Shown here in pieces: positions 1-31,628 of a stretch of DNA of 64,000 nt (positions are counted from its first letter, which is position 1; every line of letters begins with the position of its first letter). This DNA is from Acidobacteriota bacterium (GTDB lineage Bacteria; Acidobacteriota; Terriglobia; Terriglobales; Acidobacteriaceae): positions 1-64,000 of the forward strand of contig QIAN01000048.1 in the NCBI GenBank assembly GCA_003225005.1. Direction: 5' to 3'. A model generated the notes under the pieces. It made no database searches. It had not been told where the DNA came from and saw only the letters and a program-made list of their open reading frames with translations. The position numbers and the translations under genes are program-made.

Positions 1-131
1 CCCAAGCGGATTTCGCTTGCACCTCCTGCGGCCATACGGACAATGCAGACCACAACGGGGCAGTAAACATATTGGCTCGGAATGAGCCACTAGACGCTAA
101 CGCAAACGGAGTAACGCTATGCGTAGTCTAG
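1..131 (+). CDS. tnpB: 3' end of a TnpB-like (IS200/IS605 OrfB) protein, partial
   Basis: Reading from base 3, the frame gives about 42 residues ending at a TAG at 129-131. It carries the hallmark TnpB C-terminal zinc-finger and RuvC-III signature: CTSCG followed by NADHNGAVNIL, where the ADxN motif holds the last catalytic Asp. TnpB is an RNA-guided DNA nuclease encoded by IS200/IS605-type elements. Only the tail lies in the window, so intactness cannot be judged. A hairpin typical of the element's right end follows directly, and a truncated sdhB lies downstream in the same reading frame. The family call is well supported by the motif. The exact subgroup is unknown. Confidence 0.85.
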   Translation, partial: QADFACTSCGHTDNADHNGAVNILARNEPLDANANGVTLCVV

Positions 132-135
132 GAAT

Positions 136-163
136 CTTCGCCCTTCAGGGCGGAGAGGTTCAA
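136..163 (+). mobile_element. Right end of the IS605-type element / 3' end of TnpB guide RNA scaffold
   Basis: Five bases after the tnpB stop lies an 8-bp stem, CTTCGCCC / GGGCGGAG with a TTCA loop (one G-U pair), followed by AGGTTCAA. A GC hairpin just after tnpB and then a TTCAA-like end is the usual right end of these elements, and it doubles as the 3' part of the omega (reRNA) scaffold. If so, the element ends near base 163 and the guide would be read from the bases after it. The boundary is inferred by resemblance only, because the left end is outside the window. Confidence 0.6.
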
Positions 164-224
164 ACAGAAGTACGCGAAGGACGGACGCGCGGCACGGAAC
201 ACGGCGGCGCTTATCTCGACATCT

Positions 225-800
225 CGGGGCAAGTGCGGCTCGTGCTCGGCGGAGGTTAATTGCCGTCCTCGGCTCACGTGCAGGACACGCATGGATGCGC
301 TTCCCCTCGACCAACCCGTCACGGTTTATCCCATGAAGGCGTTTCCCGTGATCAAAGATCTGGTCACCGACGTTTCCTGGAATTACCGCGTGAACAAGAA
401 AATTCCGCCGTTCGCTCCCCGGCCGGACACCGACTGGAGAATCTACCAGGAGGACGTGGATCGGGTGCAGGTGTTTCGTAAATGCATTGAATGCTTCTTA
501 TGCCAGGACGTATGCCATGTGCTTCGCGAGCACGAGCAAATGGAGCAGTTCGGCGGACCAAGGTTTTTTGTCCGGGTCGCGGCGCTCGAAATGCATCCTC
601 TCGACTCGGTGTCGCGGACGCGCATGCTCAAGGATGAGCTTGGCATCGGCCTGTGCAACATTACGAAGTGCTGCACGGAGGTGTGTCCGGAGGAGATCCA
701 CATCACCGATAACGCGATCATTCCATTAAAGGAGCGCGTGGTCGACGAGTTTTATGATCCCCTGCTCATGCTGGTGCGGAAGATTCGAGGGGCAAAATAA
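225..800 (+). pseudogene. sdhB: Succinate dehydrogenase iron-sulfur subunit, 5'-truncated
   Basis: This is the C-terminal two thirds of SdhB, the Fe-S subunit that passes electrons from the flavoprotein to quinone. The [4Fe-4S]/[3Fe-4S] domain is intact (CIECFLCQDVC and CNITKCCTEVCPE). Homology starts near base 225 with GKCGSCSAEVN, then RPRLTC at about 264-281. The first Cys of the [2Fe-2S] site and all the preceding ferredoxin domain (about 60 residues) are missing. There is no ATG, GTG or TTG in this frame between 132 and 291, so translation could begin only at ATG 291 (169 aa, against about 245 for the family), after the [2Fe-2S] ligands. The upstream frame runs directly out of the tnpB element. 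It is probably a broken gene, unless the junction is an assembly error. Confidence 0.8.
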
Positions 801-844: not shown

Positions 845-1354
845 GTGGAATTCAAGCTGAAGAGCATCTCGAAGGCCGGCATTCCGGAAGCGATCTCGAA
901 GGTTGAGCTCTACCGCTCGCTGAATGAACCGGAAGAGGCGGAGTCGATCTGCCGTGACATCCTGGCCGTCGAGCCGGAGAACCAGTTGGCGCTCCGTCTG
1001 CTGGGCCTGGCGATCACTGACCAGTTCTGTGGAGACGCCTCGGATCGTTCTCGAGAAGTAGAAAACCTTTTCGAGAGGCTCGTGGAGCGCTATGAACGCC
1101 TCTACTACACCGGGCTGCTTCATGAACGGCGAGCGAAGGCGCAAATGCGCGTGGGACGTTCGCCGCACACTCTCGCTCCACTTTTTGGGGAGGCGATGCG
1201 CTGCTTCGCCGAGGCGGAAACGATTCGTCCCCCGGGCAACGATGACGCTATCCTTCGCTGGAACCGTTGCGCCCGCTTGCTGCAAAGCCATCCCGGCTTC
1301 GTGGAAGAGAGAGAGTCGGAAGCATTCGATGCCTTTGACAGCTCCCCAATCTGA
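845..1354 (+). CDS. TPR-like protein of unknown function
   Basis: A 169-residue protein starting at GTG 845, with a strong AAAGGAGG at 833-840. The N-terminal 60 residues read as a helical hairpin of tetratricopeptide type (LYRSLNEPEEAESICRDIL, then AVEPENQLALRLLGLA), and a second helical pair lies around AMRCFAEAETIRPPGND. TPR folds mediate protein contacts, and no catalytic motif is visible. No signal peptide or membrane segment is seen. It sits 44 bp after sdhB and could be co-transcribed with the sdh locus, so a role in assembly or regulation of that complex is possible but only inferred from position. Confidence 0.75.
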   Translation: MEFKLKSISKAGIPEAISKVELYRSLNEPEEAESICRDILAVEPENQLALRLLGLAITDQFCGDASDRSREVENLFERLVERYERLYYTGLLHERRAKAQMRVGRSPHTLAPLFGEAMRCFAEAETIRPPGNDDAILRWNRCARLLQSHPGFVEERESEAFDAFDSSPI

Positions 1355-3402: not shown

Positions 3403-3651
3403 TTACCCGAGCTGGCAGCAGATCATGATTTTCATCACCGCTCTGCATGCCTTGCGGGGACCAGCGGCCTGATCCTGTTCAAAGACAGGATGGGGAGGAG
3501 GCCGCAATGCCCGGACAACCAGCACCCTTTCACACGCGGTCTGGAATGTCCCCGGCGATTGCCACTGGCTCTGCCGCAATTGATCCAGCAAGCGCAAGAA
3601 GCTCTCACGTTTCATTGTCGACACTCTGCGGCACCCCGCAGTTGTCCGCAA
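3403..3651 (-). other. Possible small ORF or non-coding RNA upstream of the terminator
   Basis: A minus-strand open frame (82 codons, or 70 from an internal ATG at 3615 beginning MKRESFLRLLDQL) runs toward the terminator at 3279-3317. No Shine-Dalgarno precedes either start and the protein resembles nothing I recognise. The DNA also folds well: GCGGCCT / AGGCCGC enclosing ATCCTGT / ACAGGAT at about 3463-3504. A structured RNA is as likely as a protein. Confidence 0.3.
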
Positions 3652-3669
3652 TAGGAAAACCTCGTCCGC

Positions 3670-3710
3670 TTGTGCAGAAGCTGTGAACTATGCGGATTAC
3701 TTGTGGAAAG
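3670..3710. repeat. Copy 2 of the 40-bp direct repeat
   Basis: TTGTGCAGAAGCTGTG at 3670-3685 and TGTGGAAAG at 3702-3710, in the same order and spacing as copy 1. Copy 2 lies upstream of the minus-strand unit that ends at the 3279-3317 terminator. Apart from the hairpin repeat near 4022, nothing else is recognisable from 3711 to the rpoD stop. Confidence 0.6.
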
Positions 3711-31290: not shown

Positions 31291-31330
31291 ACCATCCTCC
31301 TTTACACGCGAAAGGGTTGCGGTGGACGGT

Positions 31331-31535
31331 TTGCGCCGGTCTCCTGGCTTGCGAGTGAGGATGAGGCTTGATCGCAGTAAAAACGCCGCGATCTGACAAC
31401 ATCCGATGGCGGCAGACGGCCTTCCCGGGCATCCCCCAGTGACCGGCTGCTATTTCCTCGCTTACAGTTGCGCGGCAGCGCGGGATTTTCACCCGCTTCC
31501 CTGTCTTCGCCGAAATGGCAAAGACGCGCAAATCG
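31331..31535 (-). promoter_or_regulatory. Cobalamin (B12) riboswitch
   Basis: On the minus strand the leader of the btuB-like gene carries the conserved core GGGAAGCGGGTGAAAATCCC, then GCTGCCGCGCAACTGTAA (31501-31462). This is followed by the B12-box-like GGTCACTGGGGGATGCC, GGGAAGGCCGTC and the 3' closing AGCCAGGAGACCGG near 31337-31351. The order and wording match the cobalamin family. B12 binding would be expected to switch off the receptor. Its limits are approximate. Confidence 0.93.
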
Positions 31536-31628
31536 AAGGACTTTTGAAAGAGCAAGAAAAAACTGGTGTGAGGAATTTACCGGGGTGAGTTGGGGAAGTC
31601 AAATTTTTACCGTGCACTGGGCTTGGGA

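What the first reader, a model, noticed from the sequence alone, without database searches (positions are those of the whole stretch)
1..800. TnpB element abutting an sdhB that has lost its [2Fe-2S] domain
The tnpB tail and its right-end hairpin lie in the same reading frame as a truncated sdhB, whose first cluster Cys and the whole N-terminal ferredoxin domain are gone. About 60 bases between 164 and 225 match neither gene. Either the element disrupted the only sdhB, a second complete sdhB exists elsewhere, or the junction is an assembly artefact. If real, the bases after 163 would be the guide of a TnpB nuclease.
Basis: partly seen in the sequence, partly recalled or inferred. Interest (0 to 1): 0.6.

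Follow-up and report, generated by a model that had tools for sequence, protein, structure and literature searches.

The report
Dead sdhAB remnant beside a TnpB
The start of this contig holds the tail of an ordinary TnpB transposon sitting in the leftover scrap of a spare succinate-dehydrogenase operon; the 60 'unmatched' bases are a piece of the neighbouring gene sdhA, and the genome keeps two other iron-sulphur genes of this family, so this is a dead duplicate and not a striking new system.

Summary
Window bases 1-163 are the tail and right end of an IS200/IS605-type TnpB element, identical over 165 bases to one other copy in the genome. The window starts at base 1 of its contig, and that other copy is also cut by a contig end, so the assembly breaks inside this repeat. 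Bases 164-226, said to match neither gene, are a fragment of sdhA (TEVREG..GTEHGGAYLDIS). They are joined at 226/227, out of frame, to sdhB beginning inside the [2Fe-2S] motif (GKCGSC..C). Against the intact sdhC-sdhA-sdhB operon of the best-matching same-genus genome, about 0.96 kb is missing there; sdhC and the rest of sdhA are not found in the assembly. The sdhB remnant keeps the second half of its ferredoxin domain and its other cluster cysteines, but shows relaxed selection. The genome carries two further full-length sdhB-type genes of other subfamilies, each beside an sdhA. Best explanation: a dispensable third sdh operon took a TnpB insertion inside sdhA and an internal deletion, in unknown order, and is decaying. 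The bases after 163 would be the TnpB guide, as for any such element. Ordinary; low interest.

The parts
1..131 (+). 3' end of tnpB (zinc ribbon and RuvC-III motif; TAG at 129-131), cut off by the start of the contig
   Evidence: Translation; identical to C507:18687-18851, whose longer 152-aa tail matches NCBIfam guided_TnpB (157.8 bits, cut-off 100), Pfam Cas12f1-like_TNB and OrfB_IS605 and the ISDra2 TnpB structures 8h1j and 8bf8
132..163 (+). Right end of the element: hairpin (GCCCTTCAGGGC core at 140-151) and terminal GGTTCAA; the 3' part of the expected reRNA/omega RNA
   Evidence: The two copies diverge after base 165; the motif occurs only at these two places in the genome within 3 mismatches; window 30-179 folds with z = -3.1; related elements end in a similar hairpin followed by GAGGATGTCA-type ends
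164..179 (+). Expected TnpB guide (first 16 bases of the flank), itself sdhA sequence; inferred, not tested
   Evidence: Guide position by analogy with ISDra2 (PMC8612924); exact match only here in the genome
164..226 (+). sdhA remnant (codons for TEVREG..GTEHGGAYLDIS) with a 6-base insertion not seen in the intact relatives whose sdhA was read here
   Evidence: BLASTN and local alignment to the sdhA of G044 and G052; relatives listed
226..227 (.). Deletion join sdhA | sdhB, out of frame, at most about 3 bases of shared sequence; about 0.96 kb absent relative to G044
228..800 (+). sdhB remnant (PRK12386 subfamily): second half of the [2Fe-2S] domain plus the complete C-terminal cluster domain; longest start-codon ORF is 291-800
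   Evidence: NCBIfam NF009052, 310.8 bits, cut-off 256; Pfam Fer2_3 and Fer4_8; lineage changes 27 synonymous: 13 nonsynonymous against 24: 2 in G044
845..1354 (+). Intact 169-aa gene with weak TPR similarity that follows sdhB in relatives too; shows the remnant lies in its operon neighbourhood

Best explanation
This is the decaying remnant of a third, dispensable succinate dehydrogenase/fumarate reductase operon (PRK12386-type sdhB). An IS200/IS605-type element carrying tnpB inserted inside sdhA, and about 0.96 kb spanning the 3' part of sdhA and the 5' part of sdhB was deleted by illegitimate end-joining. Order and cause are unknown. What remains on the contig is element right end, 63 bases of sdhA, and sdhB from the second half of its [2Fe-2S] domain. 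The element's RNA, if made, would carry an sdhA-derived guide, as in the normal peel-paste-copy cycle. Shown: element boundary, sdhA and sdhB identities, the missing segment, the paralogues, relaxed selection (weakly). Inferred: insertion and deletion as events, guide use, loss of function.
For: The two copies of the element share 165 identical bases and diverge at the expected right terminus GGTTCAA(AC). sdhA homology starts at the element's terminus. G044, G052, G054 and G050 hold contiguous sdhC-sdhA-sdhB, and G044, G052 and G054 also have the same downstream gene. A 9-kb DNA search with the G044 locus finds no sdhC or other part of sdhA in the own genome; a protein search with 440 aa of sdhA finds only the 24-aa scrap plus paralogues. 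Two other full-length sdhB genes beside sdhA genes are present. Substitutions on the own lineage are 27 synonymous: 13 nonsynonymous against 24: 2 (Fisher p about 0.03), including Gly to Cys and Glu to Val at positions kept in nearly all of 27 relatives.
Against: No reads; the contig starts inside the repeat, so the left junction and anything upstream are unseen, and the missing sdhC/sdhA part could lie in an assembly gap. The C-terminal part of sdhB still has all its cluster cysteines and an ORF from ATG 291, so some expression cannot be excluded. The selection test is small and its counts include one codon counted twice and one multi-hit codon.
Confidence: 0.85

Rival explanations
1. Assembly artefact: the join at 163/164 or at 226/227 is chimaeric and the cell has an intact operon.
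For: The contig begins inside a two-copy repeat, and the other copy also sits at a contig end; draft of 550 contigs.
Against: A break inside a repeat produces truncated contigs, and flank sequence leaving the repeat still needs supporting reads. No repeat lies at 226/227. sdhC and the rest of sdhA are absent from the assembly. The sdhA scrap carries its own 6-base insertion, and the sdhB remnant its own nonsynonymous changes.
Confidence: 0.1
2. The shortened sdhB is still a functional protein, for example a ferredoxin-like 169-aa product from ATG 291.
For: An open frame with all the 4Fe-4S/3Fe-4S cysteines is kept over 169 codons.
Against: No sdhA or sdhC partner of its type in the genome; excess of nonsynonymous change on this lineage; operon start lost.
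Confidence: 0.04

Closest known systems
ISDra2 (IS200/IS605) TnpB and its reRNA
   Same: The C507 copy matches ISDra2 TnpB (8h1j, 8bf8; E 1.4e-27); right-end hairpin followed directly by the flank that would act as guide
   Different: Only the C-terminal part of this TnpB is in the assembly (152 aa in C507, 42 aa here); about 43-51% identical to the best relatives found; tnpA, left end and TAM not seen
PRK12386 / NF009052 succinate dehydrogenase/fumarate reductase iron-sulfur subunit
   Same: 310.8 bits over the remnant, above the curated cut-off; 91% protein identity to the intact gene of G044
   Different: Lacks the first half of the [2Fe-2S] domain and its first Cys; no partner genes left

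Membership tests
IS200/IS605-type element with TnpB | TnpB C-terminal domain (RuvC-III and zinc ribbon) | tested here: met
   on the C507 copy that is identical over the shared 165 bases
IS200/IS605-type element with TnpB | Right-end hairpin just after tnpB and a sharp right boundary shared between copies | tested here: met
IS200/IS605-type element with TnpB | Left end, Y1 TnpA and target motif (TAM) to the left | not testable with these tools
   Both copies are cut by contig ends. The N-terminal tnpB fragment on C505 belongs to another family of elements (95% to C234); the one on C535 could not be paired
IS200/IS605-type element with TnpB | Guide activity of the flank RNA | not tested
   Inferred from PMC8612924
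Functional SdhB/FrdB (PRK12386) | Complete [2Fe-2S] domain with four Cys | tested here: not met
   First Cys and first half of the domain missing
Functional SdhB/FrdB (PRK12386) | Adjacent sdhA and sdhC | tested here: not met

The most novel reading that the evidence does not exclude
The sdhA scrap carries a lineage-specific 6-base insertion that can be placed about 15-26 bases from the element end, overlapping where ISDra2 TnpB cuts (15-21 bases from the TAM). It could be a repair scar of TnpB self-cleavage after excision, with the nearby 0.96-kb deletion a by-product of TnpB breaks.
Probability: 0.03. Interest if true: 0.4.

Novelty: new member of a known kind. Interest (0 to 1): 0.1.

Why it matters
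It settles an annotation puzzle: the genome has not lost its sdhB function as far as gene content shows, and the junction is explained by a TnpB insertion in sdhA plus a deletion in a redundant operon. It adds one more example of IS200/IS605 elements sitting in dispensable genes; it opens no new question by itself.

Tried and rejected
Search for the left end: tnpB N-terminal fragments at the ends of C505 and C535; C505 is from another element family and C535 could not be assigned; neither left flank is sdhA as far as read. Class-wide DNA search for the element in 399 genomes found no other real copy; the exact right-end motif has no match in viral contigs. Genome-wide search of GTDB contigs found only relatives at about 49% identity or lower apart from a 31-residue piece. 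Rfam finds no known RNA family at 1-300. The C424 flavoprotein was considered as a lost sdhA and set aside as probably L-aspartate oxidase (no NCBIfam run on it; it lacks an sdhB neighbour in the stretch read).

Full report
Observation. Window base 1 is base 1 of contig C332 (139,839 bp) of a 7.9-Mb, 550-contig draft genome. Frame 3 reads the last 42 residues of a TnpB up to TAG 129-131, and the same frame is open from there to the sdhB stop at 798-800, but its first start codon is ATG 291. The shared frame is a coincidence: a stop and an out-of-frame piece of sdhA lie between.

The element. Bases 1-165 are identical to C507:18687-18851 (minus strand), the only other copy. That copy runs 330 bases further into tnpB before its contig ends too. 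The 152-aa C507 tail passes the NCBIfam guided_TnpB cut-off, has the Pfam Cas12f1-like TNB domain, and matches the solved ISDra2 TnpB. The copies part after GGTTCAAAC; since the AC is also expected from sdhA (ACG/ACA codon of TEVREG), the element most likely ends at 163. The strand folds strongly (z = -3.1). By analogy with ISDra2 (PMC8612924), the next 16 or so bases would be the guide; this was not tested.

The 60 bases. BLASTN places 188-226 inside the sdhA of the same-genus genome G044 (92%) and, in a more distant relative, 177-225 at 82%; local alignment extends the match to about 164. Intact sdhA sequences read here encode TEVREGRGTEH or a close variant; the own copy has six extra bases after TEVREG.

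The deletion. At 226/227 the sdhA scrap meets sdhB inside its [2Fe-2S] motif. In G044 these two points lie about 0.96 kb apart. The join shows at most about 3 shared bases and is out of frame.

The intact state. G044 (91% protein identity), G052, G054 and G050 carry contiguous sdhC-sdhA-sdhB; in G044, G052 and G054 the same 169-aa gene follows. In the own genome neither sdhC nor any other part of this sdhA is found by DNA or, for 440 aa of sdhA, by protein.

Decay. On 190 codons, polarised with G052, the own lineage has 27 synonymous and 13 nonsynonymous changes against 24 and 2 for G044 (Fisher p = 0.033). This is suggestive; one codon is counted twice and one apparent stop is a product of site-by-site polarisation.

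Redundancy. C494 has a full-length PRK08640-type sdhB next to an sdhA, and C293 a full-length PRK12385-type sdhB next to an sdhA. In the genus the PRK12386-type operon is patchy, whereas weaker matches of about 30-35% identity, as expected for the other types, occur in most genomes. Loss of the third operon is therefore unsurprising.

Verdict. A pseudogenised, redundant sdh operon with an ordinary TnpB element in sdhA and an internal deletion. The assembly-artefact reading is unlikely but needs reads.

Noticed in passing
window 31317-31546 (-): Cobalamin riboswitch (RF00174, 80.5 bits).
   Followed up: no
C507 (L006:about 3510-3687, -): The second copy of the element is followed by the C-terminal coding sequence of what looks by eye like a quinoprotein-type beta-propeller (LYNSNQAANGRDHFGAGNKF...), apparently frameshifted near the element; Pfam gave no match on the 55 residues tried.
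   Followed up: partly
window 164-190: Six extra bases in the sdhA scrap, absent from the intact relatives read here, overlapping the distance from the element end at which ISDra2 TnpB cuts.
   Followed up: partly
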